A stretch of 64,000 nucleotides of DNA from Gemmatimonadota bacterium (GCA_030428885.1 JAUIEJ010000004.1:186001-250000), one strand, 5' to 3'. Shown: positions 34,601 through 59,352, counted from the stretch's first letter. Notes: a model not told the origin generated them from the letters alone. Translations and numbers: made by a program.

Positions 34601-35249
34601 CGAGGGTTCGATCGAGGATGAACTCCTCGACGAAGTCGGGGGTTTGGAGGAGCGCGTAGGTCTTGCGGGCGTGGTCCGAGAGATCCTGGTAGAGATCCCC
34701 GAGGAACCGGGTATCGAGGTCGGCGTCGGCGAAATCGTGCATCAGCTCGCCCGATGCGGGATCCACCGATTGCAGGAGCTCGCGCAGCTTGCGGGCACCA
34801 TCGTCGGTGGGTCCGAACTGCCAGAGAGGATTGTGCGCCCCCAATAGCTCCATCAATCCGGGTAGCTCGCGGTATCTCCTGAACACCTCGAGGAACCACC
34901 CGCGGTCGCCCTCCGCTGGATGGGCTGCGAGCCAATCGGCTCGGTGGTCTCCAGCCAGCCCCCTCCGCTCTCCCACGCCCGAGAGGAGCGGCGTGTCGTA
35001 GAGGCCGTTGTCCTCACAGAAACGCACGAAGGTGCTGGCCAGCACCCAGGCCACCGCGATCTGGGCCAGCAGATCCTCTCGCCATTCCTCGTAGCTGCGA
35101 TCGGTTCGACCCGCTTCGTGGGCGGTGCGGTACTGGGCCCGGACCGCCGCGGAGACGGCGTCGACCTCGTCGGTCCGCCCTCGCAGGTCGTCGATCAGGA
35201 CGGAAGTGAGCGACTTGAGGTCTTTGAGCAGTGCTTCTCGGTCGATCAT
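31665..35249 (-). CDS. pglX: BREX type 2 adenine-specific DNA methyltransferase PglX
   Basis: A 1194-residue N6-adenine methyltransferase. AdoMet motif I DPTCGSGHF is at 232-240, catalytic NPPY at 365-368 (VVGNPPYITV), then a target-recognition region and a helical C-terminus. It marks host DNA and gives the system its site specificity. ATG at 35249 overlaps the pglW stop as ATGA; a frame open further upstream carries only Arg-rich nonsense. Bases near 33.1-34.1 kb look clearly less GC-rich than the rest, fitting exchange of the recognition domain. Confidence 0.95.
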   Translation of the reverse strand: MIDREALLKDLKSLTSVLIDDLRGRTDEVDAVSAAVRAQYRTAHEAGRTDRSYEEWREDLLAQIAVAWVLASTFVRFCEDNGLYDTPLLSGVGERRGLAGDHRADWLAAHPAEGDRGWFLEVFRRYRELPGLMELLGAHNPLWQFGPTDDGARKLRELLQSVDPASGELMHDFADADLDTRFLGDLYQDLSDHARKTYALLQTPDFVEEFILDRTLDLAIETFGLAETKMIDPTCGSGHFLLGAFERIFERWRRKEPGTPVRDLVQRTLDAVNGVDLNPFAVAVARFRLLVAALKASGIRRLKEAPNYHFRIAVGDSLIHGTRSGELFAGAEGFSALLQHRYPSEDGELANDILQTGSYHAVVGNPPYITVKEPALRTVYREIYPTAYMKYSLGVPFTERFWDLAKPAGSDGRAGHIGLITANSFMKRQFGKRIIERWFPRRDLTHVVDTSGAYIPGHGTPTVVLFGRNAAPASDQTRLVLGIRGEPGAPKVPGEGLVWRSILHGIDEPGFENDFISVEDSPRRRLRRHPWSLQGGAAPAARKQVQEAGERVLEDVCSDIGFFAITGEDELFTGWRPGQLVRQRGLAPRNVARFASGDTVRDWSVHSQEEVLFPYNGDLDFELSPGGQRLCWPARRVLEAGLMFGKTRRERGLGWAEYAFLSSGRASSSRLITFAEVATDSHFVLTRRGLVFNQTAPVIKLSHDASEGDYLGLVGLLNSSTGSFWMKQVFHSKGSTVDSRGARQATVAFEDFYQRDGTKLKQFPIPSGAPIELARELNQLAQQLSATLPANILAESRPTPPALRDAEARVAQLRARMVALQEELDWQCYHLYGLTDEDLRATPLHVPNLKKGERAFEVVLARRMASGEVESTWFERHGSTPITELPDHWSPEYRRVVEARIALIESDRAIRLLERPEHKRRWNWDSWRDLEQEALRSWLLDRMESPEVWSRAELQTAARLADHLRRDPDVMTAAELLLGRPDFDLTKLVTDLAMNEAVPFEAGYRFKQGGLRRRAEWEKVWELQRREDAIDARTELAPEHPDALSKADASALKAREGLDRIPVPPKYRKSDYASDICYRLRGKLDVPQERFISYPDTHIGADTTPVLGWAGWDHLQRTQALASHYSIRQSEAAESGELTALLAGLDELVPWLKQWHNELDPQYGQRMGDYFASFVETQVRSLGLSLDELRSWTP

Positions 35250-43068: not shown

Positions 43069-45792
43069 ATGGCCCGCCTCCCCGCCGCCAAACCCATCCT
43101 CGACGCCGCTGCTCACTGGCGAGACCGGTGCCTGCTCGGCGAACGCTCGGTCTTCACCGACGAAGCCCTCTGGACTCGTGAGAACGTCCAGGCCCTCGTT
43201 GAACACTACGCGAACAATCTTGATGCCGGCGAGGGCACGTTCTTCAGCAAGTTCGAGAGCCAGATGATGTCGGGCCCGCCCGAGTCCCGGAAACTGGCCG
43301 CCGAGATGCTCTGGGTCATGTATCTCATCATGGCACCGAGCACGATGGGTGGAGGGTCCAAACGGAAGCAGATACGCCAGGTCTGGGAGTGGTCCGGCGA
43401 TAGCCTCTCCGAAGACCACCCTCTCCTCGGTACCGTGCTGGAGAAGGGGGTAGTGAACACCGGGGCTGGATACAATACCCACCGCTGGCGGGAGATGCTC
43501 TTCTTCGTCCAGCTCCTGGACCAGTGGCACGAGCTCGACGGCGAGCGAAGAGCCGCCCTCCTGGACGACGCCTGGGAGTTCCAACGCTGGCTCGACAGCT
43601 TCGACTTCACCTCGGGTCGCCAGCTCCGTCACATCCTGCTGTTCTACCTCTTCCCCGATGAGTTCGAGCGCGTCGCCTCGGTGTCGCACAAGCGGGAGAT
43701 CGTGAAGCGCTTCCGCGCCGAGTACGGCCTGCCGAGAGGCGAGGTCAACTACACCGACAGCGGGCAGCTCGACCAGCAGATCTTCATGATCCGGGAGAGG
43801 ATCCGCGGGGAATACGGGGAAAATGCCGACGAGATGGACTTCTATCTCGATCCGTTGGCCTCGGTCTGGCGCGGAGACGACGATCCACCGCCGCTCGACG
43901 ATGAGGCGTTGGATCGGGCCAAGGCTCTCTTCATCCGGCGATTCCCGGACTTCGAGACCTTCGAGGCCAGCGGCGAGCGGTACAAGGTGGACGAACGCGC
44001 GTACAAGGACGAACTCGTACGCCGCTGGAAGGCCGTAGCTGCCGACCTGCCCGAACCTGGCGACCTCACCGCCGAGCGCGCCGCCGACATCACGGAGCGG
44101 CTGAAGGACCTGCTCTCGAGTCCCCTGGACACCATCGGGCAGCCTCAGAACCTGATCAACTGGCGCTACACCAGCTTTCTGCGGGAGATGGACGGTCCCG
44201 AGAAGGTCACGTTTGTACGGGCCCTCATCGCTCTCGTCCGGGGCGAGGAATCCTCCGCGAACCGGGCCGGCGCCTTCGTGCAGGCGATCTGGCCCATCAT
44301 GGAGAACCACGGAGCCACGGGCTATGCGGCGTCTCGTAGCGTGCCTTCGCTCTTGCTCTTCCTGAACGATCCCGCCCACGACATCTACGTGCGCACCGAT
44401 CTCTTCGACTCCCTGGCCGGCCGCCTCACCGGCGAACTGGTATTTCGCAGCAAGCGCCTCGACCGACGCGAGTACGCCCGGGCGCTGGGCTTCGCCCAGG
44501 CCGTGGAGGACGCCCTCGAGCAGATGGGCTGGCCCCCGCGCGACATGATCGATGTGCAGAGCTTCATGTGGTCGGTGGAGCAGGAGTGGGCAGGCCCTGA
44601 CCCGATCATCGTTGACCCACCCGAGGACGGCGACTTCCTCGCACTCCGCCAGACGCTGCTGGACGCCGGTCTCTACTTCCCCGCCGAGCTCGTGGCCAAC
44701 TACGTGCTTGCGCTCCAGACCAAACGTCTCGTGATCCTGACGGGCATCTCGGGCACCGGAAAGACCCAGCTCGCCAAGCAGGTGGGGGCCCACTTCGCCC
44801 CTCGGCGGGACGGTGACCCCGAGGAACCGCTCGTAGTCGCCGTGCGCCCCGACTGGACCGATCCCCGGGGGCTGATCGGGTACTACAATCCGATCACGGA
44901 GTCCTACGTACCCACGGAGTTTCTGCGGCTGTTGCTCAGGGCCCGGAAGGAGGAAGACCAGGCCCACATCGACGGGCGCCCGCCGCAGCCGTTCTTCGTG
45001 ATCCTCGATGAGATGAACCTCGCCCGTGTGGAGCACTACTTCGCCGACTTCCTCTCGGCGCTGGAGTCGGGGAGCGACCTGACGCTGCACCACGGCACCG
45101 CCGGCGAGGAGGGCGACGGCACGAGCGACGCCATTCCCCCGACGCTGCGGATCCCCCGCAACGTGTTCTTCACGGGCACGGTCAACGTCGACGAGACGAC
45201 GCACATGTTCAGCCCGAAGGTCCTCGACCGTGCGTTCACGCTGGAGCTGTCGGAGGTGGACCTCGAGGGGTGGACGACGTCGGGGGCCGTCCCCGACGCC
45301 GATGCACCGGGGCTGGATCTTCCCTCCATGCACGCGCGCCTGCGCTACGAGCTGGCGCCCGGGGCCGAGGATTGGGACGCCTTCGGGTCGCTCCTCGGCG
45401 GCGCCCTCCGCGACACCGTGGTGGCCCTGAACGGAGCCCTGGCGCCCAGCGGCTACCACTTCGCGTATCGGGTGGCCGGCGAAATCGCGCGCTTCGTGCG
45501 GCTGGCCCACGCCCAGGGGGCCGACAGCCCGGCGGCGCTGTGGATGGCCCTCGATCTGGCGTTGCTCCAGAAGGTGCTGCCCAAGTTCCACGGCACCGAG
45601 CAGGAGCTTCAGGCGCCGCTGGAGGTGGTGGAGCGGCTGGCGCGGACCGGGCGGGTGGCGGCGGAGTCCGATGGCGAGGAAGCTTCGGGTGGCTTCGAGG
45701 GTGGGTCGGCTCGCCTGCCGCGATGTCTCGCGAAGGTGGAGCGCATGCAGGCTCGGTTGCGGGCGCGGGGATTCACCGCCTTCATCGAATGA
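43069..45792 (+). CDS. mcrB: McrB-like AAA+ NTPase
   Basis: A 907-residue protein. An N-terminal half of about 540 residues without recognised domain may be the DNA or target sensor. The C-terminal half is a McrB-type AAA+ domain: Walker A GISGTGKT (about 558-565), Walker B FFVILDEMNLARVEHYF near 646 and sensor TVNVDETTHMFSPKVLDRAF. McrB uses GTP to move on DNA and activates McrC. ATG at 43069 was chosen; a frame from 42973 lacks a ribosome site. The gene is the first of a two-gene operon, diverging from the BREX-side EEP gene. Confidence 0.88.
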   Translation: MARLPAAKPILDAAAHWRDRCLLGERSVFTDEALWTRENVQALVEHYANNLDAGEGTFFSKFESQMMSGPPESRKLAAEMLWVMYLIMAPSTMGGGSKRKQIRQVWEWSGDSLSEDHPLLGTVLEKGVVNTGAGYNTHRWREMLFFVQLLDQWHELDGERRAALLDDAWEFQRWLDSFDFTSGRQLRHILLFYLFPDEFERVASVSHKREIVKRFRAEYGLPRGEVNYTDSGQLDQQIFMIRERIRGEYGENADEMDFYLDPLASVWRGDDDPPPLDDEALDRAKALFIRRFPDFETFEASGERYKVDERAYKDELVRRWKAVAADLPEPGDLTAERAADITERLKDLLSSPLDTIGQPQNLINWRYTSFLREMDGPEKVTFVRALIALVRGEESSANRAGAFVQAIWPIMENHGATGYAASRSVPSLLLFLNDPAHDIYVRTDLFDSLAGRLTGELVFRSKRLDRREYARALGFAQAVEDALEQMGWPPRDMIDVQSFMWSVEQEWAGPDPIIVDPPEDGDFLALRQTLLDAGLYFPAELVANYVLALQTKRLVILTGISGTGKTQLAKQVGAHFAPRRDGDPEEPLVVAVRPDWTDPRGLIGYYNPITESYVPTEFLRLLLRARKEEDQAHIDGRPPQPFFVILDEMNLARVEHYFADFLSALESGSDLTLHHGTAGEEGDGTSDAIPPTLRIPRNVFFTGTVNVDETTHMFSPKVLDRAFTLELSEVDLEGWTTSGAVPDADAPGLDLPSMHARLRYELAPGAEDWDAFGSLLGGALRDTVVALNGALAPSGYHFAYRVAGEIARFVRLAHAQGADSPAALWMALDLALLQKVLPKFHGTEQELQAPLEVVERLARTGRVAAESDGEEASGGFEGGSARLPRCLAKVERMQARLRARGFTAFIE

Positions 45793-47363
45793 GCGAGGTC
45801 GCGGTGGAGTCGCCGCTGCGGGTGCGGTCCCGGAAAGGGGACCAGGCGCCGGTGTTCGAGGGGGCGCTTCAGGTGCTGGCGGCCGAGCTGGAGTGGGTGG
45901 TGACGGGCCCGGCAGCGGAGGTCATGGCGCTGGCTCATGCCCTGCCCCGCCACGGGGAGCGGGTAGCCGAGGGCGTGCTGCTACTGCGGTTCGGGAACGC
46001 GGTGGGGGAATTAGACCTGCCGCATCTGGGGCGGGTCGAGGTGCGGTCGGGCAAGTGGGGCGAGGCGACCTTCGACGCCATGCTGGCCGACCTGGTGCGG
46101 ATCGCCTCGTCGCTGCCGTTCTCGCGGGGGGATGGTCCGATGCTGCGTTTCTCCATGGACCGGAATCCGACGCAGAACGTGCTGTACCACGCCTTTCTGT
46201 ACCTGCGCCACGTGCTCTCCGACCGGGCGCCCCGGGATCAGCGCCTGATGCCGGCGCTGGAGGCGGTGATCCGCGATCCGCACCGGCGCTGGAGCCGTAT
46301 CGACCGCCGGGTGCCCATCGAGGCCATGACCCATGCCGGGCCGTCGACGGTGGCGCAGTTGTTGGCGGGTCGGCTGGACCGCCCGGGAGCGGGCACGCGC
46401 GTGGGCGGCGGGGGCCGGCGCCTGATGAACCGTCTCGGAGGCCAGCTCCCGGTGAGCGTGGTGGAGAGCCAGGTGCGCTCGGACCTCGATACGCCGGAGA
46501 ACCGCTTCGTGCGGCGGTTCCTGGAGGAAGCGGCCCGGACTGTGGCCCTGGTGATGAAGGCGGCCGAAGGGGAGCGGAGCGAGGCGTTCCGAGCACGGGT
46601 TCGCGCGGAGGCCGCGGATTGCGCGGAACGGCTGGAGCAGGTGCGCCGGGCGCCGCTGTGGCGGGAGGTGGGCGAGGCAGGCCACCTGCCGTCCGGGTCG
46701 ACGGTGCTGCGCCAGCGCCGTGGCTACCGCGACGTCTTCGGCCACTGGGTGCGGATGCGGCGCACGGCCCAGCTCCCCCTGGACGATCGGGCCCTGCAGT
46801 CGCTGGTGGAAGCCAAGGACATCGCGACGCTCTACGAGCTGTGGTGCTACTTCCAGACCGTGGAGGCGGTGTCGGAGGTGCTGGGTCCGCCGCTCAGGAA
46901 GGGCTCGTTCGCGGTGAGCGAGTTCGAGCTCGGCGTGAACCGGGAGTACTGGGTGGAGTGGGACGACGTGCGGGTGGGCTACAACGTGCCGCACTCACGG
47001 GGCCGGCGGGGCATTCGGCGGTCGTACTCGGTGCCGCTCCGCCCCGACATCGTGCTGGAGGACCGCCGCTTCGGCGCTCCCCGCGTGCATCTGCTGGACG
47101 CCAAGTTCCGGCTGCAGCGGAAGGTGAGCGAGGACGGCACGAAGCGCTCGTTCAAGCCCGCCGACGTGCACAAGATGCATGCGTATCGGGACGGCATCGT
47201 CCACGCCCGGACGGCCTGGGTACTGTACCCCGGCGACGAGGATGCGTGGTGGGAGCTGGAGCCGGGGTTCGGGGTGGGGGTTGTGGGGTTGGTGCCGGGG
47301 GCGGGGGCGACTCGGCTCGCTTCGCCAATCCAAGCGCTATTCGTGCCGCCTTCCGACTCGTGA
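45789..47363 (+). CDS. DUF2357 McrC-like nuclease, partner of McrB-like protein
   Basis: A 524-residue protein starting MSEVAVESPLRVRSRKG, its ATG overlapping the McrB-like stop. The C-terminal third contains PDIVLEDR near 418 and LLDAKFRL near 437, the Asp and DxK of a PD-(D/E)XK nuclease, as in DUF2357 proteins that replace McrC beside McrB-like ATPases. The middle is helical and may bind the ATPase. Together the pair is expected to cut modified or foreign DNA (type IV restriction). Confidence 0.85.
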   Translation: MSEVAVESPLRVRSRKGDQAPVFEGALQVLAAELEWVVTGPAAEVMALAHALPRHGERVAEGVLLLRFGNAVGELDLPHLGRVEVRSGKWGEATFDAMLADLVRIASSLPFSRGDGPMLRFSMDRNPTQNVLYHAFLYLRHVLSDRAPRDQRLMPALEAVIRDPHRRWSRIDRRVPIEAMTHAGPSTVAQLLAGRLDRPGAGTRVGGGGRRLMNRLGGQLPVSVVESQVRSDLDTPENRFVRRFLEEAARTVALVMKAAEGERSEAFRARVRAEAADCAERLEQVRRAPLWREVGEAGHLPSGSTVLRQRRGYRDVFGHWVRMRRTAQLPLDDRALQSLVEAKDIATLYELWCYFQTVEAVSEVLGPPLRKGSFAVSEFELGVNREYWVEWDDVRVGYNVPHSRGRRGIRRSYSVPLRPDIVLEDRRFGAPRVHLLDAKFRLQRKVSEDGTKRSFKPADVHKMHAYRDGIVHARTAWVLYPGDEDAWWELEPGFGVGVVGLVPGAGATRLASPIQALFVPPSDS

Positions 47364-48752: not shown

Positions 48753-50846
48753 CTATTTCAGCCTCTCCGTGAAGATCCGGCCATGGAAGATCGCCGATGT
48801 GACAAACTCCCCCCGGTGATCGAACGCAAAGGTCACGCTACGCCCCCAGGACGAAAGCTTCACACGCGCGACACGGCGGGTGGCATCGCGCGCCACTTCC
48901 CATTCGACAGGGCGACCCAGACTCCGATCACCCAGGCCGGAGAAGGCCTCGATCAAGAGATCACCTGGATCCTGAGTGGCCATCAATTGACTGCACGTCC
49001 GACACTCCTTGGACGAAAGACCGTAGTCGCGTGTGCAGACCGATGCTCCGCAGGAACTGCACTCGGCCCGGTGACCGGAGCAGGCTGGCTCACCGCAGAC
49101 CGGGCACTGCTCCAGCTCAGTCAGCTTCATCGGATGCTGATCGAACACACAGGTGCCGTGGTGTTCCGCGCAGGCGAATTCGCCCCCTCCCAGATCCACG
49201 ATGTGCTCTCGGCAGTAGGTGCGACCGTCGGCGAAGCAACTCCCCCGATGCTCGCCACATACCCACTTCTGGCAAGCCGTACAGGGCTCAACTTCGTCCG
49301 AGGCGAGGAGGACGTCGGTGTGCACCTCGCACCGGCCTCGGTGCTCCGGGCAGACCCATCGCCGAGTGAAGTCGGTTCGCTCGAGATGGGAAAGGCAATG
49401 CCGCTCGCCGTCGACAGCGCAGACCTCCCGGTGTCTCGAGCAGACGTCTTTCCCACATGTCTGGCACATCTCGACCTCGTCCACCCCGCGAACCTCGTCC
49501 TTCAGGTCCCGGCACAACCTCACACATGCCGGACAGAGAGGGCGCGGCTCTTCGGCTTCGTCGCCTTCGCCCGGCACGAACGTCGGAGTCGCCGTGAACG
49601 TCGTGTGGTTGTAGCAGATCGCCTGACCACAGGAGGCGCAAGATTCTAGGCACGTGAGGCAAACACGATGCCCGCCCGCTAGGCAGACTCCGGCGTGCTC
49701 CACACAGAATGTGCTCTGACACGACGCGCACCGACGCGCGTGATCATCGCAGACGTGATGCACCGATTCACCGTCGCCTCCGCGGCAAGTCCCCCCCCCG
49801 TGCTCGTCGCAACTCGTGCCACCACAGATGGTGCAGGACTCCGTGCAGGTGGCGCAAGCGACGTGGCCGCCCGAGCAGACCGACCAGGCTCTGGGTTCGG
49901 ACCCGTGGCACGAGGGGCAGAGCAGGTCCCAGTCGGCGTCCCCCAGGAGCAGGCGCCGGCTCGTCAGAGTTGCTTCGATGGACCCGTCCAACAGCAGCGT
50001 GTGTGCTCGCTCCGCAAGTACCTGACAGAGTTCGAGTTGCATTGGCCGTAGCTCCGCGCTCGCCCGGTTACGAGCGATCTCCTCAGCCTTCCGGCGTTCG
50101 TGCTCCTGCCTGTAGGCACGTACAGCGTCCGACCCACCCGGTCCGTCTTGAGCCTCCTTGATCAGGCGACCGTAGTACCCGTCCAAGCGTGAGAGCTCCC
50201 GCTGGAGAGATCGCTCCACTTCCGCTCGCGCGCCGGCGAGCCACTCTTCCAGCCGGGCCTCAACGTCGTCCAGAAATCCAGGTAGCAGGTGCTGGAGAGG
50301 CTGCGGCGAAGCAATCTGATGCTCCCCGGCGTCCGCCCTCTCGCGCACTCTGCAATCGAGCTCGTCGATTTCCACCTTCCCGATCGGCTGACCCGTCGAG
50401 AGATCGAACCAGCCTGTCTGAACGAGACGGTCTTCGACCCTGCTCCCGGTCCGCACAGAAGCGGCGAGGTGTAGTCGGCCGATGGGAAGCCACTCCGCCT
50501 CCGTTCGAGTATCGCGTACCTGGCCACGGGTGAGGACGAGGGACGCTGAGGGGAACTTGGCCCCAGCACCTGCTGACGTCTCGACGAAACCCCTGTGCAG
50601 CTGCCCCCCGCGACTTCGTGCAGCTGCGAGAAGGTCTTGGGCGAATCGACTCCCAATTACCGCTACTTCCGCATCCGGGTGCAGGTCCATGCTCTCGATA
50701 TCGAGCGCGAGCACGCGGGTCGTTGCGCCGAACCACGCGACTTCGGACGGGGCTGGCTTGAATACACGAATGCCCTTCTCAGGGCTTTCGATCGAGCCTC
50801 CGGCAACCGCCACGTAGGCGTCGAGGAGCCGAAGAACCTCACTCAT
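48753..50846 (-). CDS. Large cysteine-rich zinc-binding protein, partner of the SNF2 helicase
   Basis: A 697-residue protein. The first 300 residues are mixed, with a coiled-coil part (QEHERRKAEEIARNRASAEL). From about 310 to 640 there are many C-x2-C and C-x-C-H pairs (for example CPSCHGSEPRAWSVC, CATCTESCTICGGTSCDEH, CPACVRLC, CQTCGKDVCSRH) that can form a tandem array of zinc ribbons. The C-terminus (about 650-697) returns to beta-rich sequence. It overlaps the SNF2 helicase gene by four bases and is therefore likely made with it. No known defence family is recognised. Confidence 0.85.
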   Translation of the reverse strand: MSEVLRLLDAYVAVAGGSIESPEKGIRVFKPAPSEVAWFGATTRVLALDIESMDLHPDAEVAVIGSRFAQDLLAAARSRGGQLHRGFVETSAGAGAKFPSASLVLTRGQVRDTRTEAEWLPIGRLHLAASVRTGSRVEDRLVQTGWFDLSTGQPIGKVEIDELDCRVRERADAGEHQIASPQPLQHLLPGFLDDVEARLEEWLAGARAEVERSLQRELSRLDGYYGRLIKEAQDGPGGSDAVRAYRQEHERRKAEEIARNRASAELRPMQLELCQVLAERAHTLLLDGSIEATLTSRRLLLGDADWDLLCPSCHGSEPRAWSVCSGGHVACATCTESCTICGGTSCDEHGGGTCRGGDGESVHHVCDDHARRCASCQSTFCVEHAGVCLAGGHRVCLTCLESCASCGQAICYNHTTFTATPTFVPGEGDEAEEPRPLCPACVRLCRDLKDEVRGVDEVEMCQTCGKDVCSRHREVCAVDGERHCLSHLERTDFTRRWVCPEHRGRCEVHTDVLLASDEVEPCTACQKWVCGEHRGSCFADGRTYCREHIVDLGGGEFACAEHHGTCVFDQHPMKLTELEQCPVCGEPACSGHRAECSSCGASVCTRDYGLSSKECRTCSQLMATQDPGDLLIEAFSGLGDRSLGRPVEWEVARDATRRVARVKLSSWGRSVTFAFDHRGEFVTSAIFHGRIFTERLK

Positions 50847-53254
50847 GGGGCCCAGGCCCCCGTAACGATCCGGTCGGTTTCATCCGAGAGGGGAGCCTCT
50901 CGGTCGGCATGGATCTTCAGTAGAGTCACGGGCAGTCGATCCGCGGCGACGAGGAGCGACACCCCTCTGGCACGGCCGGTGGCAGAGTGGATCCAGACAG
51001 TTGGCCCGTAGTCGGTCACTTCGGCCGGTTCGATTCCATCCGGCACCGGCGCCAAACGAAGCGCCTCCTGAATTTCCGAGGCGGCCAGACCCAGACTCAG
51101 CCGCTCAGCCTCCACCCCCGCTACGAGATTCATCAACCGGGTGCCGTACGCCAGGCGCACCCGGGCCGGAATCGAGAGGACTCCGAACTCCCGCTCCAGG
51201 CGTTCCGCGTTATCCTCTGGAGCGATGTAGCTCGAGCGTTCTTCCGCCTCCTTTCCTTCGGCGTAGCTCCGCTCCACCTCCTGCTCGATCGTCCGGACCT
51301 CTCGCTCGAACGCCTCATCGCTGGATGCTGAGAGCCAGGCGTCCAGGAACCGCTTCTCGAGGTCGGAGGCATCGTCGAATCGCCCGAGGATGAGGTCCAA
51401 CTCACCGACCACGAGTTCAAACAGCCGGATCTTGTCCTGAAGCACCTGCAGGATCCGGTCTTCGACCGTCCCAGTAGCTGCAAAGTTGTAGATGACCACC
51501 TCTCGCTTCTGCCCGATGCGGTGGAGGCGCCCGATCCGCTGCTCGACCAGCAGCGGGTTCCATGGTAACTCGTAGTTCACCAGGACGTGGGCGAACTGGA
51601 GGTTCAGCCCCTCGGCTCCTGATCGAGAGCTGAGTAGCACGCTTCCCGGCGTCTCACGGAACCGGAGCTTGAGACGTGCCCGTCGAGCTCGATCAACACC
51701 GCCATGGTAGGGGAAGACGGTTATGCCCTTCGCCTTCAGGTGGTGCTTGATGAGGTCGATTGTCGGCCGGTGCTCGCTGAACACAACGATTCGCTCACCC
51801 TCATGGGCCCGCAGGACCGCATCCAGTCCACGCAGCTTGGAATGCGTCGTGACCGCTTTGGCCTGGTCCGCCAGATCTCCAGCGCGGCGCCGAAACCTCG
51901 GCCTCACTGCCTGCCTCTTCGAGAGCCGATGGAGCGAGGCCGCGATCGCTTGGCTCGAGGAACAGATGCGTTGGGCCATCATCGTCAGCACGAAATGCGC
52001 ACCGCCGGCTGCCGCTGCATCCGGGTACATACCAACCGCGTAGAGCTCCCGCAGGAAGGCGGTCACCTCCGTGTACAGGGCCTGCTCAGCCGCCTCCAGG
52101 CGAATCTCCGGCCGGTGAGGACGTCGGGGTGGCAAATGCAAGTTCACGTTTGCGCGCTTATTGCGCACCATGACCTGGGCTGCCACGTCCCGGATCCCGG
52201 TCGGGTCTCGCGGCACCCTCGGGTCCGACCCCATGTACCGACGCTTGAACTCCTTCCAAGTACCGAACTGCCCTGGCCGAAGCAGGGTCACGAGGTTGTA
52301 GAACTCCCTGAGGTCGTTCTGGAGCGGCGTCGCAGTCAATAGCAGGAGGAAGTCACGGGTGAGCTTCTGCAACATCTGATAGAGGGCGGTGCGGTGGTTC
52401 TTTGCCTTGTGTGCCTCGTCCACGATGACGACATCCCACGATCGTGCCGTCACGTAGGGGCGATTGGCGGCATGCCGCGCTCGCGAATGGCTGGCCACCA
52501 GGAGATCGTGGCTCTTCCAATCGCTCTGGTCTTGGACGGTGTCGAATTCAAGGAAGAACTTCTCGCTCATCTCCTCCTGCCATTGATCCACAAGGGATGC
52601 TGGACAGAGGATCAGAACGGACTTCACGAGCCGTCGGGCAAGGAGTTCCTTGAGGATGAGGCCTGCCTCGATGGTCTTGCCGAGACCCACTTCATCAGCG
52701 AGCAACGCCCGCCCTGACATTTCTCGAAGCACGCGGATCGCGGTGTCCGTTTGATGCGGGAGTTCATCGATGGTGTTGGCGTCCAGCGCGATGAGCTCCT
52801 CGAACCCGGGGCGCAGAGCAAGCCGCTCGGCCGCGCGGCGGAGACGAAACCACTTCGCTGCGTCAGGTTCCGCACCGTATGGATCCAGCGCACCCGACAC
52901 GGCGCCCAGGAAGTCCCGGATCTGCTGCTCCCCGAATCTGAACCGGACCTGTCCCTCCCGGCGGCGCACCCGTTCGTGAAGCCAACTTAGATCTCCCTCA
53001 AACGGCCGCGCGTTGTCTCGCGTATCACCGGTCGTAATGCGGTGCTCCCGGGGACTCCCTGAAGACCGGGTGCGTTCGATCTCGGCGATGGCCTCGCGTA
53101 CTCGACCCTCGAGCCTCTCTGCCGCCGATGTAGTCCGATTCCGAAGTACCCGGAGGACAGCATGGAGCCGCGTCTCGTCCCGCTGGCGGATCCACGCATC
53201 GACGAGAGGAGCCATGTCGGCGATCCGCATGTTCCGGAGCGGCGGCTCAGGCAT
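50843..53254 (-). CDS. SNF2/RapA-like superfamily 2 helicase
   Basis: An 803-residue helicase. Walker A ADEVGLGKT (186-194), DEAH (279-282), LLLTATPLQND, and in the C-terminal part HRIGQK in the arginine-finger region (QRIGRLHRIGQK). The first 150 residues and the last 200 are extra, the last carrying a long acidic coiled coil. SNF2 enzymes move along DNA and appear in DISARM, Zorya and other defence systems. ATG at 53254 is decided by GGAGG (53260-53264). It is the second gene after an SNase-like gene and before the cysteine-rich gene. Confidence 0.92.
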   Translation of the reverse strand: MPEPPLRNMRIADMAPLVDAWIRQRDETRLHAVLRVLRNRTTSAAERLEGRVREAIAEIERTRSSGSPREHRITTGDTRDNARPFEGDLSWLHERVRRREGQVRFRFGEQQIRDFLGAVSGALDPYGAEPDAAKWFRLRRAAERLALRPGFEELIALDANTIDELPHQTDTAIRVLREMSGRALLADEVGLGKTIEAGLILKELLARRLVKSVLILCPASLVDQWQEEMSEKFFLEFDTVQDQSDWKSHDLLVASHSRARHAANRPYVTARSWDVVIVDEAHKAKNHRTALYQMLQKLTRDFLLLLTATPLQNDLREFYNLVTLLRPGQFGTWKEFKRRYMGSDPRVPRDPTGIRDVAAQVMVRNKRANVNLHLPPRRPHRPEIRLEAAEQALYTEVTAFLRELYAVGMYPDAAAAGGAHFVLTMMAQRICSSSQAIAASLHRLSKRQAVRPRFRRRAGDLADQAKAVTTHSKLRGLDAVLRAHEGERIVVFSEHRPTIDLIKHHLKAKGITVFPYHGGVDRARRARLKLRFRETPGSVLLSSRSGAEGLNLQFAHVLVNYELPWNPLLVEQRIGRLHRIGQKREVVIYNFAATGTVEDRILQVLQDKIRLFELVVGELDLILGRFDDASDLEKRFLDAWLSASSDEAFEREVRTIEQEVERSYAEGKEAEERSSYIAPEDNAERLEREFGVLSIPARVRLAYGTRLMNLVAGVEAERLSLGLAASEIQEALRLAPVPDGIEPAEVTDYGPTVWIHSATGRARGVSLLVAADRLPVTLLKIHADREAPLSDETDRIVTGAWAP

Positions 53255-53281
53255 CGCCACCTCCTTGGTGGGGAACCGACG

Positions 53282-54058
53282 TCATGACCCCCCTCCACAC
53301 CTTCCTGCACGCCGCTCCACGGGTAGACATACGAAAGCTCCGACCCTCCACAAGCCGGCATGCTCCGCGCGGGCGGTGTCGCCGGCGGCGCGCACGGCAT
53401 CTACTCCAGCGATATTTGGTGAGTAGACGAGGGGGACCGCATAGCCCCGACGGACCATCGCCCGGTTGAGCCAGACTCCCTGTCGATCGTAGAGATGTGC
53501 CAGCAAGCGCCCGTACCGGTCTCGCTCCTGCACATCGAGGGCTACGACGGCTGAATCTCCAAGGGGCAGCATCTCTTCAAGGGCGAGGCTGGCTCTCAGG
53601 GAATGGCCGTCCCGGCCGTCCTCGGGGGCGTCGATGAGCAGCAATCGGATCCGCAGGCCGTTCACGCAATCCAATGTGTCGCCATCTACGATATGCCCGA
53701 CCACGCATACTCCCACGGGTCGCCCAGGACCGTCTTGACGGCTTTGGCCCGCAGCGAGAGGTACGAGTCGGTCGATTGCGACCAGGGGCTGACATCGCCG
53801 GTTCGTGGTGCGACGATACCCTGCCGACACGGCCAGGGCTTCTGACTCAAAGAAGCGTAGGTTGGATGGCGAGAGCCGTTCCCAGGCGTCGCACTCGACC
53901 GGATAGAACACAGATCCCCGAGACGATGCCACGAAACGGGTACCCGATGGGGGCAGAACCTGTGCTTCGAGGCGGTTCCTGGCCACATCAGAACCGAGCA
54001 ATCCAACGATTGCGAGAATGACCCATGCGATCGTCGAGAGAGGGGACGAGTCGCTCAT
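53282..54058 (-). CDS. Membrane-anchored SNase-like nuclease with cysteine pair
   Basis: A 258-residue protein. An N-terminal hydrophobic helix (TIAWVILAIVGLLG, about 9-22) is followed by an Ada-like metal-binding segment (FYPVECDAWERLSPSNLRFF and a second Cys near 89), then an SNase barrel: GDTLDCVNGLRIRLL, LIDAPE (Arg138, Glu146) and DRYGRLL (Arg184), which match Arg35, Glu43 and Arg87 of staphylococcal nuclease. It would be a single-span membrane protein or secreted nuclease. ATG at 54058 follows GGAGGAGAC. It starts the strand leading into the SNF2 helicase. Confidence 0.85.
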   Translation of the reverse strand: MSDSSPLSTIAWVILAIVGLLGSDVARNRLEAQVLPPSGTRFVASSRGSVFYPVECDAWERLSPSNLRFFESEALAVSAGYRRTTNRRCQPLVAIDRLVPLAAGQSRQDGPGRPVGVCVVGHIVDGDTLDCVNGLRIRLLLIDAPEDGRDGHSLRASLALEEMLPLGDSAVVALDVQERDRYGRLLAHLYDRQGVWLNRAMVRRGYAVPLVYSPNIAGVDAVRAAGDTARAEHAGLWRVGAFVCLPVERRAGRCGGGS

Positions 54059-54165
54059 GTCTCCTCCATCAAGAAGGCGCCCGGCTTGCGGGATGTGGTC
54101 AGATCCATGGTCCCGAATCTAGTTTGATTCTCCCTCGATCTTCCTCCTTCAGCCGTACCCCGACG

Positions 54166-54780
54166 ATGGATCAAGCCACCGAAGCAGCGAGAAGCTCGGT
54201 TCGAAACCTGGGCGCCCTTTACTCGGTTGTCGTGGGCGTGGCCCTGGCCTTCGCGATGGAGAAGCTGGTGGACGCCGAAGCTGCGTCGGTATTTCAGTGG
54301 CATCTTGTTCCGCTGTTTCTCGCGCTGGTCGTAACGCTGGTCCCGTTCTACCATGGGGCCCTTCGACATCTCGATGTGACCTACGTCGAGCACGGAACGT
54401 CGGACGTCCGGGCTGGGGCACTGCTCGCAGACTTCCTTCTACTGTTCCTCGAAGGAAGTCTCTTCGTCGGCCTTTCCGTGTTGCTGGGACGGCCCGAGGT
54501 GTTTGGATGGACGCTTGTCGCTCTTCTGCTACTGGATGCGATCTGGGGTTTCACAGCGCATCTTGCCTTCTCTCGGCATCCGAAGCTCAAGGCAGAAGCT
54601 CGCTGGGCGTTCGTCAACGCTGGCACGGTCGTGATCCTCGTTCTTTTCCTGATCGTCCTCGGGGCCTACCCACCGGGCCGCGTTCCCGAGTCCGGTGGGC
54701 TTGAGATCGGCCTTCTCGGGATCGCGGCCATCCGCACGGTAGTCGACTACGCGGTGAGCTGGGAGTTCTACACGGCGTAG
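54166..54780 (+). CDS. Multi-span membrane protein, unknown
   Basis: A 204-residue protein starting MDQATEAARSSVRNLGALYS. Five or six hydrophobic helices are visible (about 17-35, 44-66, 82-104, 112-133, 145-165 and a last near 180-200). The polar loop FYHGALRHLDV between helices two and three is striking. No enzyme motif was seen. It is the only plus-strand gene in this part, between the SNase-helicase group and the channel operon, and so may be part of neither or of both. Confidence 0.8.
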   Translation: MDQATEAARSSVRNLGALYSVVVGVALAFAMEKLVDAEAASVFQWHLVPLFLALVVTLVPFYHGALRHLDVTYVEHGTSDVRAGALLADFLLLFLEGSLFVGLSVLLGRPEVFGWTLVALLLLDAIWGFTAHLAFSRHPKLKAEARWAFVNAGTVVILVLFLIVLGAYPPGRVPESGGLEIGLLGIAAIRTVVDYAVSWEFYTA

Positions 54781-54790
54781 TCGTCGATCG

Positions 54791-55183
54791 TCACGTAACG
54801 AGACGAAACACGGCGAAACCGAGCCCACCGAGTAGCCCGAAGAGCAATACGCTCATGCCGACCGCCCAAGCCCACTGCTTCCATCGCCTCGGGCGCCGGC
54901 TCGCGACTGTCGCACCATGGGACCTCCGGACCAATCGGTCGGCCCGACCCTGATCCGCACCGGGCCCTCGAGGCCTGAGCCAGAACTCGGGAAGACCTCG
55001 ACCATCGATCGGAGGCGGGGCGCCGGCGTCGTGTCGAGGCTGCTCATCCGGCCGTTGCGCGAGCGCCCATTCGTACACGTCTTGCGGACTTCCCTTGAGG
55101 TCGGACATCCGGAATCTCTTGATTCCCGCCCTGCGGAGAACCACGGCGCGGAAGCTGAGGACTGCTTCGTCTAACGCATCCAC
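54791..55183 (-). CDS. Tail-anchored small membrane protein, unknown
   Basis: A 130-residue protein with a polar N-terminal 90 residues, basic and Pro-rich near 75-105, and one C-terminal hydrophobic helix (AWAVGMSVLLFGLLGGLGFA, about 105-125). No known domain. It follows the ZorB-like gene directly (stop and start adjoin), so it is the last gene of the membrane operon. It may stabilise or sense the channel complex; that is a guess. Confidence 0.75.
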   Translation of the reverse strand: MDALDEAVLSFRAVVLRRAGIKRFRMSDLKGSPQDVYEWALAQRPDEQPRHDAGAPPPIDGRGLPEFWLRPRGPGADQGRADRLVRRSHGATVASRRPRRWKQWAWAVGMSVLLFGLLGGLGFAVFRLVT

Positions 55184-56062
55184 TCAGTTCTCCAGACGCT
55201 TGTAGAAGAATTGCTCTACCGTGAGCATGCCGGCCTTGAACGCATCCTTGCTATCCGCCACCTCATCCACGAGCACCACGAAGTGTCGGCACTCGGGATT
55301 CTGCTCCATGCTCCATTGGAGAATTGGGGTCACCCGAGACCTGAACTCGGAATGGCTCAACCCCTCTCCGGCCGCCGCTAGCATTCCTCGAATGGCCTCA
55401 GCATCAGCCTGCCGACGCTCTGGCCAGGTCGGTCGGAGATCAACCGTGCCCGTGTGCAGTACCGCCACAAAGGCGTACTCGATCTCACCCGCGTCATCGG
55501 CCCAACACGGCGGGTGATCGAGGCCGTTCCCGCTTGCCCGTTGGTAGTAAGCGACCTGGTTCGCAAGTTCCCTGCTCCGGTCGTCGAGCCGCGTCACTTC
55601 AGCCGCCAAGCTATCGATGGCGTCCGCCGCGTTTGGGTCGGCCCCAGCCGCAGCCAGGAGGTTGTTGAACCGCGTCTCGTCTTGTCGAGAAAGGAACGCA
55701 AGAGTGTCCACCAGTGCAGCGGTCGACTTTTCCGCCATTCGCGTCGAGTCCGCACCGCGCTCGACAAGGGCCGCCAGCACCCGCTGCCGCGCCCGGCCTT
55801 GCTCCTCCATCAACCGGGTCAGCTCCGTGAACTCCTCTGGTATTCCTCGAGAGGCTTCGAGGACGACGCGGGAAAGCTCTTCCATGGCCACCGGTCCCAA
55901 CTCCTCTGCCACCTCGATCAACTCCGCATAGTCTTCAGTCTCGGTCCGCACCTTCTCCAGTTCGGACCGCTCCCACGCCAAAGCCAGGGCCAGCGCAAAG
56001 AACAGGAGAACGAAGATCTCCGTGAGCGTGAATGGAAGGACCTGCCGGTGCTGGTCAGCCAT
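55184..56062 (-). CDS. Single-span membrane protein with coiled coil and C-terminal domain, ZorB-like in layout
   Basis: A 292-residue protein starting MADQHRQVLPFTLTEIFVLL: one hydrophobic helix (about 10-32), a long coiled-coil segment (35-190), and a conserved-looking C-terminal domain with DHPPCWADDAGEIEYAF and CRHFVVLVDEV. The layout of one helix then a periplasmic part matches the ZorB/MotB/ExbD partner of proton-channel proteins, though the OmpA peptidoglycan domain of ZorB is not seen. ATG at 56062 was preferred over 56077. It overlaps the channel gene by eight bases, so they are coupled. Confidence 0.75.
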   Translation of the reverse strand: MADQHRQVLPFTLTEIFVLLFFALALALAWERSELEKVRTETEDYAELIEVAEELGPVAMEELSRVVLEASRGIPEEFTELTRLMEEQGRARQRVLAALVERGADSTRMAEKSTAALVDTLAFLSRQDETRFNNLLAAAGADPNAADAIDSLAAEVTRLDDRSRELANQVAYYQRASGNGLDHPPCWADDAGEIEYAFVAVLHTGTVDLRPTWPERRQADAEAIRGMLAAAGEGLSHSEFRSRVTPILQWSMEQNPECRHFVVLVDEVADSKDAFKAGMLTVEQFFYKRLEN

Positions 56063-57116
56063 GGACGGTGTCCTCATCCGCGCCCAATCGTTTCGTCAGA
56101 AATTCCACCGACTCGGCGAGCTCATCCCGGACCCCAGCAAGCGATCGATTCATCTCATTCGCCTTCTTGGCCAGATCGCTCTGAGCCGTGGCGAGATGAT
56201 CGCAGGTCCGTCCCCAGGCCTGTAGCCCCGCCTCCATGCTGTCTCGGCCACCGTCAATCGCCCCGCGAAGTCGCTCCACGCCTCTGGAAAGGCGGTCGAG
56301 ATCGGACTCCAAGGTCACGACCGACTTCTCGAGGCCGGCGGCGGCCTCGACCGTCCGGGAGAGCTTCTCGCGAACGGCCTCGGGGAGGGCCGAGACGGCC
56401 TCCATCTTCTTGTTTGCGGCCTGAACGCCCTCGATTGCCTCGGCCCACGCATTCCCGACTCCGGAAGAACTCGTCGCAATCACGTCGGAGAACGTCTGCA
56501 GCCGGCTCTCAATCTGTGAGAATCGGTCCGCGATGACCTCCGCCGACGCCGCGATGCGCCGGCCTCCATCCTCCACTGGCCCCAAGGTGGCTTCCAAGGC
56601 GCCAGCGAACCGCTTAGTGACGGCTTCTGTCTCAGTCTGCAGACGGTTGAGGGTGTTGTAGAGCTCGGTCTGGGCCCGTTCGAGCCGGACACGAGACGAG
56701 GTGCCGGACTCGTCCACATCGGACCGGAACATCACAATCGTCACTCGACCGGTGAGGCCAATGAACGTGGTTACCAGCGCCAGGCCGAACTGAGATAGGA
56801 CAGCCCGGAGAAGATCCTCCTGCGATTGATCGCCGAAACGGACCAGCACCACAACGAGGGCTACCAGCGTCAAAAGGAAGCCCATGTAGTAGAACGAGTC
56901 AGCGAAATCGTCCTTCCCTACCTCGTCGGGAGCTCGAGCTCGGGCCGCCATGAGGTACACAAGCATTCCTCCGCTAGCCCAGAAGACCGGGAGAAGCTGA
57001 TAGCCGCGAAAGGAGAGGACCGAACTTCCGACCGACGAGATCACCAGGAACAACACGAACTGAACCCGCAGTGCGTCGCCGGTGCGAAGTGCTGTCCCGG
57101 AGCCAGACCTGCTCAT
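56055..57116 (-). CDS. ZorA/MotA/TolQ-like channel protein with coiled-coil tail
   Basis: A 353-residue protein with four hydrophobic helices (about 18-36, 39-58, 71-94 and 101-130). The last reads LALVTTFIGLTGRVTIVMF, close to the pore helix pattern of MotA/TolQ/ExbB. From 131 on there is a long cytoplasmic coiled-coil tail (ERAQTELYNTLNRLQTETEA, heptads to 345). This four-helix-plus-tail shape is that of ZorA. Such proteins use ion flow to drive motion. Neighbours on both sides overlap by a few bases. The assignment rests on helix pattern and context. Confidence 0.75.
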   Translation of the reverse strand: MSRSGSGTALRTGDALRVQFVLFLVISSVGSSVLSFRGYQLLPVFWASGGMLVYLMAARARAPDEVGKDDFADSFYYMGFLLTLVALVVVLVRFGDQSQEDLLRAVLSQFGLALVTTFIGLTGRVTIVMFRSDVDESGTSSRVRLERAQTELYNTLNRLQTETEAVTKRFAGALEATLGPVEDGGRRIAASAEVIADRFSQIESRLQTFSDVIATSSSGVGNAWAEAIEGVQAANKKMEAVSALPEAVREKLSRTVEAAAGLEKSVVTLESDLDRLSRGVERLRGAIDGGRDSMEAGLQAWGRTCDHLATAQSDLAKKANEMNRSLAGVRDELAESVEFLTKRLGADEDTVHG

Positions 57117-57985
57117 CCTTCAATCCTCTGCACTCGCATCACCAACCCTCCTTGCTCGCCGATGTAGGAGTCCCACAGCTCAATGAGATTGGATGCCCCC
57201 TGACCCGCTGAGGGCCGCCCACCGAGCCGCTCCATGTACAGGATCTGAACACTGACGTCCCTCAACGATCGCGTCCCCAGGACGTTGGTGGCGGCGAGGC
57301 GAACACCATCCTCGCTACTCCATTCCGAATCGGAGTAGACGCTATACTCAGGGGAGTTCTGCATGAGGTCCGAGATCAGCATCACCTGACGCGAGGATCC
57401 CGCAGCGGCCTCCCCAAAGCTCCGGAGCGCAGCCGTGCGGAGGGTCTCCATGATGGGTGACGCGGCACTCTCCCCTGCCGCTCCCTCATCAAGGACGATC
57501 GCATCCAGCTTGGCCTTGTACTCGGATCTCCAACGCTCAGTCAATTGCTCCGGATTAGCGACCAGTCGTGATCCGCCATCCCGAATGATCGGGAACTTCT
57601 CAAAGTCCGATGGCAGTCCCGGGTTGCATAGCTCCAGCAGCGCCTCAGGTACCGGCCCGGCCTCTGGCCGCACGGTGAACAGGTGCACGCGCCCGAATCG
57701 AGGAACCTGCTCCTGGATTTCCTCGAGCCGCTGCTCAATTGCGAGGCGCTGAACTGGAGACCAAGGGTCGGTGCCGTCGACGATGAGGACCGTCTCACTG
57801 GTTGGCGCCCGATCGACGGGGCAGAGGTCTTCGGTGAGGTCGGGGTTCCACTCGCGCGCCAGAAACACCGCCATGGACGTGACGCCGAGAAATGCCAACG
57901 CTAGTCCGACCGCGAGATACAGCGTGAAGCGAGCCTTCGTCTCACGTTCCCGAGCCCGCCGATTGACTACCGGACGTCGGGTCAT
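57113..57985 (-). CDS. Single-span protein with VWA-like domain
   Basis: A 290-residue protein. One N-terminal helix (FTLYLAVGLALAFLGVTSMA, about 22-42) is followed by ETVLIVDGTDPWSPVQR, a VWA-like first strand and loop, then LELCNPGLP and ISDLMQNSP. The usual DxSxS metal site is replaced by DGTDP, so metal binding is doubtful. Similar single-span proteins with an (I/V)DxTDP motif occur beside TolQ-like channels, as far as recalled. The gene overlaps its neighbours by four bases at each end. Confidence 0.7.
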   Translation of the reverse strand: MTRRPVVNRRARERETKARFTLYLAVGLALAFLGVTSMAVFLAREWNPDLTEDLCPVDRAPTSETVLIVDGTDPWSPVQRLAIEQRLEEIQEQVPRFGRVHLFTVRPEAGPVPEALLELCNPGLPSDFEKFPIIRDGGSRLVANPEQLTERWRSEYKAKLDAIVLDEGAAGESAASPIMETLRTAALRSFGEAAAGSSRQVMLISDLMQNSPEYSVYSDSEWSSEDGVRLAATNVLGTRSLRDVSVQILYMERLGGRPSAGQGASNLIELWDSYIGEQGGLVMRVQRIEG

Positions 57986-59352
57986 TCCAAGACCTCACGC
58001 TCCAGTTCTGGAACCGATCGGGCCAACGACTTCTGATCCTCGAGGATCGTGGACAGCTCCTGGAGATTGAACGGGTCCACCTCAAGAATGGGGCCGAGCT
58101 CGGCTTGCTCAGTGAAATAGCGCGGCGGGGGTGTCCCGCGGACCAACCGGTTCTCATCTCGATAGGCCCGGACCATTGCCGCGTGTGCCGCCTTGGCATC
58201 GTGAAGGAATGTGTCGCGGTTCGCCTCCAGGCGACGCATCCTGGCAACGAGGGATTCCGACATCTCGAGATCGGCCAGTATCTGATCCCGCAATTCAGTC
58301 CTCTCTGCATCGGTGAGAGATCGATGGTCATCCGCCATCTCCTGAGCGTCCCACCGAAGTTCGTCTAGATCGGCATCCAACTCTGCGAGACGCCCGCTGA
58401 GTCGCCGCAATGTTGGGTCCCGTTCATTCCAGCTCCACCCTGCGAGCACCGCGGAAACAGAACAGGTGATGCCGATCGTCAGGAGAGCCCACGACATGAA
58501 GTCCGTGAACCCGAGCGGCGACTCCAGCAATGACGGCAGCCATTGCTCGATTCCCGACTCAAAGCCAAGAGTTCTGACGACGTTCCGGAGGTGGACCACC
58601 CCGAGATTCCAAGCGGGAACTGTGATCACGACCACTCCGAGCAGCAGAACGCCAAGTACCCGATCTACCCATCGAGCGCCCGCAATCAGCCCGATGCCGC
58701 GACCCAGATGCACGTGGGCGACCACGTCCGCAACGCCGAGCATGACCGCCAAGCCGAGACCAAACGATAGGCCCCAACGGCTCCCGGAGGCGAAGAACGC
58801 GGCATTTGCGAGGGCCTGTACCAGCGCCACGAGTATCACCCAACCGAGCCTGAGCCGCCGATCCGAAGGCTCCTTGAGGTCCGCCTCACGGACAACTCCA
58901 TACTTCTCCCGATAGGCCTGAAGGTCACTGGCGACCGAGCTCCGTCGGGCCTCGAGGAGCCGGATCTCGTGTTCCACGCGAAGCTGATCGATTGTCGGCC
59001 CGGCGGCTTCGAACGCTCCGGGTTGGAGACGCCTCACAGCAGGGCGGATATCGCGAGCCAACAAGGCAGCCCGCATCTTCTGCCACTCCACGTTCGCGGC
59101 CCGCACACCGTCGCTGATGCGCTCCTGAACGAATTGCGTCAGAAGGAGCTGGGGCCCGTCGGGATTCGGATCATCACTAGCGGGAAGGTCCTTCTCACCG
59201 AAGCGGCGCGCCTTCTTCTGGATCCGGAACCTCTTGAGGGTCTGTTCAACATCGATCCTCTGAAAGATCTCGTCCGAAGAATGACCTCGATCCCGGTCAG
59301 GAAGAAAGATTGACCGGATCCAATTCCAGAACGATCGAAGCACGGCCCTCAC
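57982..59352 (-). CDS. Multi-span membrane protein with cytoplasmic coiled coils, head of the channel operon
   Basis: A 456-residue protein from GTG at 59352. The first 160 residues are charged and helical. Four hydrophobic helices follow (LGWVILVALVQALANAAFFA, LSFGLGLAVMLGVADVVA, GVLLLGVVVITVPAWN and WALLTIGITCSVSAVLAG, about 170-320), then a coiled-coil C-terminus (RLSGRLAELDADLDELRWDA and on) of 130 residues. No known family is recognised. It is the first gene of the five-gene membrane operon and overlaps the VWA-like gene as ATGA. No good ribosome site was seen; GTG at 59343 is an alternative. Confidence 0.7.
   Translation of the reverse strand: MRAVLRSFWNWIRSIFLPDRDRGHSSDEIFQRIDVEQTLKRFRIQKKARRFGEKDLPASDDPNPDGPQLLLTQFVQERISDGVRAANVEWQKMRAALLARDIRPAVRRLQPGAFEAAGPTIDQLRVEHEIRLLEARRSSVASDLQAYREKYGVVREADLKEPSDRRLRLGWVILVALVQALANAAFFASGSRWGLSFGLGLAVMLGVADVVAHVHLGRGIGLIAGARWVDRVLGVLLLGVVVITVPAWNLGVVHLRNVVRTLGFESGIEQWLPSLLESPLGFTDFMSWALLTIGITCSVSAVLAGWSWNERDPTLRRLSGRLAELDADLDELRWDAQEMADDHRSLTDAERTELRDQILADLEMSESLVARMRRLEANRDTFLHDAKAAHAAMVRAYRDENRLVRGTPPPRYFTEQAELGPILEVDPFNLQELSTILEDQKSLARSVPELEREVLE

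What the first reader, a model, noticed from the sequence alone, without database searches (positions are those of the whole stretch)
54791..59352. Five-gene membrane operon with a ZorA-like channel: candidate undescribed motor system
Seen: five minus-strand genes that overlap or adjoin. A four-helix protein with a MotA/TolQ-type last helix and long coiled-coil tail, a one-helix partner, a one-helix VWA-like protein, a multi-span coiled-coil protein and a tail-anchored protein. Known: ZorAB channels power the Zorya system by ion flow. Inferred: this is a related motor with two or three extra membrane parts that Zorya does not have, placed in a defence island. Canonical ZorB (OmpA domain) and ZorC are not seen.
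Basis: partly seen in the sequence, partly recalled or inferred. Interest (0 to 1): 0.82.

Follow-up and report, generated by a model that had tools for sequence, protein, structure and literature searches.

The report
Zorya-like membrane motor with VWA partner
Four adjacent genes, found in the same order in two distant groups of bacteria and often beside known anti-phage systems, look like a membrane motor related to the Zorya phage-defence motor but joined to two unfamiliar partners, so this is probably an undescribed relative of a known machine whose job still has to be tested.

Summary
Four of the five genes are confirmed; the fifth is doubtful. Genes A (57982-59352, four spans and coiled coils), B (57113-57985, one span plus a VWA fold), C (56055-57116, MotA/TolQ/ZorA-like with a coiled-coil tail) and D (55184-56077, one span with an invariant Glu) overlap by 4-23 bp.

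The order A-B-C-D recurs in 16 Gemmatimonadota loci, window included, and in all 14 alphaproteobacterial plasmid loci examined (24 plasmids hold B). In Alphaproteobacteria, D carries a peptidoglycan-binding OmpA domain and can match ZorB (E 6e-25). So C-D is very probably a 5:2-type ion-driven motor and A-B are constant extra parts. The 54791-55183 gene has no convincing relatives.

Half of 12 Gemmatimonadota contexts lie beside known defence genes (BREX, Gabija, Bunzi, GmrSD-type, type III RM); control regions gave two single-gene models. In four plasmid lineages an exported SNase sits beside the cassette. No such system was found in PADLOC, Pfam or the papers searched. Function is inferred, not shown.

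The window's D lacks OmpA, and ZorC/E/F/G are absent, so this is not a Zorya by definition although it probably works like one. Verdict: new variant of a known kind (5:2 motors), candidate defence system. Interest 0.70.

The parts
57982..59352 (-). Gene A: 456 aa, N- and C-terminal helical/coiled-coil regions around four membrane spans (169-303); first gene of the cassette
   Evidence: Homologues at the same position in every cassette examined; no Pfam or PDB match
57113..57985 (-). Gene B: 290 aa, N-terminal membrane span then a VWA fold with two invariant Cys (C55, C120) and D70/D73, S205-D206
   Evidence: AlphaFold pLDDT 75.7; Foldseek top hits BatB, integrin I domains, VWF A1; alignments
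56055..57116 (-). Gene C: 353 aa, MotA/TolQ/ExbB/ZorA-like channel subunit; invariant T83 in helix 3, near-invariant T117 and G120 in helix 4, about 220-residue coiled-coil tail
   Evidence: Pfam MotA_ExbB sub-threshold; hhalign 85-87% to a TolQ/ExbB/ZorA profile, reversed controls at or below 12%; alignments; weak model whose first Foldseek hit is ZorA 8qyd
55184..56077 (-). Gene D: 297 aa (likely start at 56062, 292 aa), MotB/ZorB-like partner: N-terminal span with invariant Glu (T-x-x-E), coiled coil, distinct C-terminal domain with two conserved Cys
   Evidence: N-terminus matches alphaproteobacterial D profile at 98.5%, E 3e-15; those D proteins have OmpA and match ZorB; alignments
54791..55183 (-). 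Gene 1: 130 aa tail-anchored ORF abutting D; doubtful, not a conserved part
   Evidence: No convincing homologue in 298 genomes; atypical codon-position GC
53282..54058 (-). SNase (thermonuclease) with N-terminal hydrophobic segment and Ada-like zinc domain; candidate accessory nuclease, weakly linked here
   Evidence: Pfam SNase 2.6e-12; SNase lies beside the cassette in four plasmid lineages, but in the window 732 bp and an opposite-strand gene separate it, and related SNases are common in the phylum

Best explanation
A-B-C-D is a mobile cassette for an inner-membrane, ion-driven motor that works like ZorAB. Five C subunits would form the channel ring and two D subunits its axle, with the invariant Glu of D as the ion-binding acid inside a Thr ring of C. 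D's periplasmic domain contacts the envelope: peptidoglycan via OmpA in Alphaproteobacteria, an unidentified domain in Gemmatimonadota. B places a VWA domain in the periplasm as ligand binder or docking platform, and A carries coiled coils into the cytoplasm. Envelope disturbance during phage or foreign-DNA entry would release ion flow, C's tail would turn or shift, and the signal or torque would act through A-B on an effector. In several rhizobial and Microvirga copies the effector is probably a neighbouring exported SNase that cuts entering DNA. Shown: gene order, homologies, fold of B, genomic company. Inferred: stoichiometry, ion flow, trigger, defence, role of the nuclease.
For: Order A-B-C-D is fixed in 16 Gemmatimonadota and 14 alphaproteobacterial plasmid loci. 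C relates to TolQ/ExbB/ZorA by profile with conserved pore-type Thr in helices 3 and 4. D carries OmpA, matches ZorB at 5.7e-25 and the type II ZorB structure 8VVI at 2.8e-8. B is a VWA fold. PADLOC models at E <= 1e-20 around 11 cassettes: 94 families, including Gabija, BREX, Bunzi and GmrSD-type; around 11 control regions: 2 families. The window island holds type 2 BREX genes. In four plasmid lineages the neighbouring SNase is the only one on the plasmid in nearly all cases. Low GC3 (0.70-0.74 against 0.79-0.94 in most of the other window genes sampled) and absence of B and C from the genus members searched suggest acquisition.
Against: No experiment. About half of the Gemmatimonadota copies and all Paracoccus copies have ordinary neighbours, and a group of four genomes keeps it in one ordinary syntenic place. 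No cytoplasmic effector like ZorE or ZorD is constant. SNase is missing from most Gemmatimonadota, Paracoccus, Tistrella and Sinorhizobium B11 copies. C falls below the Pfam cut-off, and its own model is poor (pLDDT 59). A-B pairs occur without C-D. Some control regions also hit one PADLOC model (mad3, four proteins).
Confidence: 0.55

Rival explanations
1. The cassette is a 5:2-type motor that does ordinary envelope work, as Tol-Pal, Ton or Agl motors do: C-D use the proton gradient to drive a periplasmic task (envelope repair, transport, surface movement) through the VWA protein B and scaffold A.
For: Many copies lie among metabolic or transport genes (L007, L047-L050, L054, L056, Paracoccus L122/L126). 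Non-flagellar MotAB relatives are known to be diverse with many unassigned roles (PMC12505986). No constant nuclease.
Against: Patchy distribution, plasmid carriage in Alphaproteobacteria, low GC3 in the window, repeated company of BREX, Gabija, Bunzi and GmrSD-type genes, long ZorA-like tail and ZorB-like D in Paracoccus.
Confidence: 0.3
2. C is not a channel. A-D are a membrane scaffold or chemoreceptor-like assembly of coiled-coil proteins with a VWA domain, and the MotA resemblance is convergent helix sequence.
For: Pfam score below cut-off, poor AlphaFold model, plasmid C proteins sometimes annotated as methyl-accepting proteins, A-B pairs exist alone.
Against: Collinear two-helix profile match with reversed controls far lower, invariant Thr positions, and the very next gene is an OmpA/ZorB-type stator partner in Alphaproteobacteria.
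Confidence: 0.1
3. The system handles extracellular DNA for uptake or nutrition: the exported SNase trims DNA and the motor helps move it.
For: SNases have signal-peptide-like N-termini and sit beside the cassette in four plasmid lineages.
Against: No competence genes beside the cassettes examined; many copies lack SNase; does not explain the defence-island company.
Confidence: 0.05

Closest known systems
Zorya (types I-III), ZorA-ZorB motor
   Same: MotA-type channel subunit with long C-terminal coiled tail followed by a one-span acidic partner; OmpA domain in alphaproteobacterial D, which can match ZorB at E 6e-25; frequent defence-island company
   Different: Always preceded by A and B, which Zorya lacks; Glu instead of Asp in the D span; Gemmatimonadota D has no OmpA; no ZorC/D, ZorE or ZorF/G; nuclease neighbour, when present, is an exported SNase
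TolQ-TolR / ExbB-ExbD and other non-flagellar generic ion transporters (GIT class of PMC12505986)
   Same: Helix pair with the conserved Thr/Gly pattern aligns with TolQ/ExbB TM2-TM3; motor A and B subunit genes adjacent
   Different: Long C-terminal coiled tail, coiled-coil D, VWA and four-span partners, no TolA/TonB/Pal partner gene
MotA-MotB flagellar stator
   Same: One-span partner with acid in the T-x-A-[DE] position and OmpA domain (MotB structures 6ysf and 8ucs hit)
   Different: No torque-interface cytoplasmic domain between helices 2 and 3; not with flagellar genes
BatA/BatB-type membrane VWA proteins
   Same: B fold: BatB 3ibs is the top Foldseek hit
   Different: No MoxR ATPase or Bat operon; MIDAS-like motif is DxTD/DPSD rather than DxSxS

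Membership tests
Zorya defence system | ZorA: MotA-type channel subunit with long cytoplasmic C-terminal tail | tested here: inconclusive
   Profile-profile 85-87% to a TolQ/ExbB/ZorA set; weak model, first Foldseek hit ZorA 8qyd but E 0.52; PADLOC ZorA hits fall on the coiled coil
Zorya defence system | ZorB: one span with essential Asp and peptidoglycan-binding OmpA domain | tested here: not met
   Window D has invariant Glu and no OmpA; alphaproteobacterial D do have OmpA and Paracoccus D matches ZorB2 5.7e-25
Zorya defence system | Type effectors ZorC+ZorD, ZorE, or ZorF+ZorG with ZorAB | tested here: not met
   None in the cassettes; nearby SNF2 helicase 50843-53260 scores higher to BrxHI/DrmD than ZorD and is duplicated elsewhere in the genome without the cassette
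Zorya defence system | Protection against phage | not testable with these tools
   No experiment possible; only defence-island company
MotA/TolQ/ExbB superfamily | Conserved GLxGT and ALxTTxxGL helix pair with pore Thr residues | tested here: met
   YYxGLLFT with invariant T83 and FGIALxTTIxGL with near-invariant T117; hhalign with reversed controls
MotA/TolQ/ExbB superfamily | Score above the Pfam PF01618 curated cut-off | tested here: not met
   16.5-17.8 bits against 22.9
MotA/TolQ/ExbB superfamily | 5:2 assembly and ion conduction | not testable with these tools
   No multimer prediction available
VWA domain proteins | Rossmann-like VWA fold | tested here: met
   Foldseek: BatB 1e-4, VWF A1, integrin I domains
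VWA domain proteins | Canonical MIDAS motif DxSxS | tested here: not met
   Window has DGTDPWS; family has D-x-[ST]-[DN]

The most novel reading that the evidence does not exclude
A further class of ZorAB-like defence motor in which a fixed A-B module (four-span coiled-coil protein plus periplasmic VWA) replaces the cytoplasmic Zorya effectors, the stator's periplasmic anchor has been swapped between lineages, and in some lineages an exported SNase destroys DNA in the periplasm before it enters the cytoplasm.
Probability: 0.35. Interest if true: 0.85.

Novelty: new variant of a known kind. Interest (0 to 1): 0.7.

Why it matters
Zorya is the only ion-motor defence system in the PADLOC models and papers searched here, and how its motor acts on an effector is still open. 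A second, independent motor design with constant membrane partners and, in some genomes, an exported nuclease would show which features are essential (Thr ring, acidic axle, tail) and which are exchangeable (peptidoglycan anchor, effector). Copies on plasmids of culturable Rhizobium, Sinorhizobium and Paracoccus make it testable now.

Tried and rejected
Gene 1 as a core part: rejected. SNF2 helicase plus 697-aa protein (48753-53260) as effector: rejected; the pair is duplicated (SNF2 82%, 697-aa protein 58-68%) 9-13 kb beyond the window without any cassette gene. Window SNase as a proven part: not accepted; relatives occur in 68 of 298 genomes of the phylum, the closest ones in genomes without the cassette, so only the plasmid adjacency counts. 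Type IV pilin reading of the D N-terminus (G/FTLxE-like): considered from the sequence, rejected because the protein follows a MotA-like gene and has OmpA in relatives. OmpA homology of the Gemmatimonadota D C-terminus: tested by profile comparison, none. Phage or virus carriage: none. Direct sequence search of C, B and A profiles against PDB found nothing useful.

Full report
Observation. The five minus-strand ORFs are present as described. They are called here A (57982-59352), B (57113-57985), C (56055-57116), D (55184-56077) and gene 1 (54791-55183). A/B and B/C overlap by 4 bp and C/D by 23 bp, and gene 1 abuts D. Their third-position GC (0.70-0.74) is below most other window genes sampled (0.79-0.94), though the adjacent SNase and SNF2 genes are similarly low (0.66-0.75). 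C is absent from the five other genomes of the genus and B from the three of them listed, which suggests acquisition from elsewhere.

Recurrence. A search with C among relatives found three genomes with the same neighbours. A profile of B found 22 of 395 Gemmatimonadota genomes. Reading the surrounding DNA showed A-B-C-D, always in that order, in 15 loci besides the window, and A-B-C in one more, L057. Six loci carry a diverged A-B pair without C or D. A GTDB-wide pattern scan returned only Gemmatimonadota, but it was driven by one short peptide pattern and is not evidence of absence elsewhere.

A second phylum. tblastn of B against plasmids found Paracoccus, Rhizobium, Sinorhizobium, Microvirga and Tistrella plasmids (23 and 24 records). 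All 14 plasmid loci read have A-B-C-D. There D is annotated as an OmpA family protein. Pfam OmpA reaches its cut-off in the Rhizobium copies. The Paracoccus D matches PADLOC ZorB2 at 5.7e-25 and the type II ZorB structure 8VVI at 2.8e-8. No phage or viral contig carries the family. In a tree of A+B+C the window copy is a long, lone branch between the Gemmatimonadota and Paracoccus copies.

C is a MotA/TolQ/ZorA relative. Pfam MotA_ExbB is hit below threshold. Aligned family members share YYxG[FL][LI][FY]T in helix 3 and NFG[IV]Ax[ST]T[IV]xG in helix 4, with T83 invariant and T117 near-invariant. Profile-profile comparison with TolQ/ExbB/ZorA proteins of the same phylum gives 87% (E 4e-6) and 85% (E 6e-6), against at most 12% for reversed profiles and under 1% for family A. 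The alphaproteobacterial C alone scores only 19%, so the link leans on the Gemmatimonadota members. The AlphaFold model is weak (pLDDT 59). Its first Foldseek hit is ZorA 8qyd, with TolQ entries following, but none is significant.

D is the partner. Its N-terminal span, [GP][LF]TxxE followed by a Leu/Phe-rich helix, is shared between phyla (98.5%, E 3e-15) with the Glu invariant. This is where MotB/ZorB carry the ion-binding Asp (ZorB D24/D21, PMC11890865). Its periplasmic end differs: OmpA in Alphaproteobacteria, and an unrelated two-cysteine domain in Gemmatimonadota.

B and A. B has a confident alpha/beta core, and its best PDB matches are VWA folds. The two invariant Cys and the basic N-terminus before the span fit a periplasmic domain (inference). 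A has no match in Pfam or PDB. Neither belongs to any Zorya type described in PMC11890865.

Company. The window island contains type 2 BREX genes (PglW 35246-39439, PglX 31665-35249, PglY/BrxC 28051-31644, BrxHI 21934-24048) and a gene pair whose first member (43069-45792) matches PDC-M26A. Other cassettes lie beside Gabija (L006), BREX (L045), a type III methyltransferase (L046), Bunzi (L055) and two GmrSD-type genes (L057). At E <= 1e-20, flanks of 11 cassettes hit 94 PADLOC families and 11 control regions hit two: mad3 in four proteins and MzaA in one. Counting 6 of 12 contexts against none, one-sided Fisher p is 0.009; counting 7 against 1, p is 0.019. The controls come from only three genomes, and counting every mad3 hit as defence would weaken the contrast. 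This is support, not proof.

Nuclease. An SNase lies beside the cassette in Microvirga (downstream, same strand), the R. leguminosarum group (downstream, convergent), S. fredii (one gene away) and the Sinorhizobium CCBAU 05631 / R. leguminosarum TA1 / Rhizobium BG4 group (upstream, same strand). On these plasmids it is the only SNase found, except Microvirga ossetica with two. R. gallicum keeps an SNase next to a D fragment. These SNases begin with signal-peptide-like segments. The window also has an SNase with catalytic Arg, Asp, Glu and Arg retained, but 732 bp away beyond an opposite-strand gene, and such SNases are common in the phylum, so its membership there is uncertain.

Mechanism. Shown: constant gene set and order, motor-type signatures in C and D, VWA fold of B, genomic company. 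Inferred: a C5D2 motor held in the membrane, triggered by envelope disturbance, driven by ions across the Glu/Thr ring, passing motion through C's tail or D's periplasmic part to A-B and, where present, to an exported nuclease. Confidence that C-D is a motor of this class is about 0.85, that it serves defence about 0.6, and in the whole account 0.55.

Novelty. Literature searches found no motor defence system with VWA or SNase parts, and no PADLOC model matches A or B. The library is limited to open papers, so prior description elsewhere cannot be excluded.

Noticed in passing
window 19323-39439: Type 2 BREX genes (PglW, PglX, PglY/BrxC and BrxHI matched; a PglZ-sized gene between them not tested) on the minus strand, with further small genes (MazG-like) near BrxHI.
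   Followed up: partly
window 43069-47363: Two-gene plus-strand unit; the first protein matches PDC-M26A and resembles the McrB-like gene next to the cassette in L055.
   Followed up: partly
window 48753-53260 and L164 9378-13669: SNF2 helicase plus 697-aa cysteine/zinc-rich protein, duplicated on the same contig 9-13 kb beyond the window; 697-aa relatives in 24 of 298 Gemmatimonadota genomes. Looks like a separate two-gene system.
   Followed up: partly
L010 4474-12110: Distant C- and D-like genes follow a 14-span protein and a penicillin-binding-type transpeptidase gene: a possible motor tied to cell-wall synthesis.
   Followed up: no
L058-L063: Diverged A-B pairs without motor genes; in L061 a second A-like gene follows. 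Suggests A-B is a unit with its own function.
   Followed up: partly
L046, L051, L053, L054: A voltage-gated-channel-like membrane gene recurs near several cassettes.
   Followed up: no
L129 11536-13011: A PD-Lambda-1 defence gene sits directly beside the SNase of the S. fredii cassette.
   Followed up: no
window 54025-54780, plus strand: A multi-span membrane protein of unknown type lies between gene 1 and the SNase on the opposite strand.
   Followed up: no
G000:C22:112631-112864: The window's own genome has another weak MotA_ExbB match in a 475-residue frame, away from the window.
   Followed up: no
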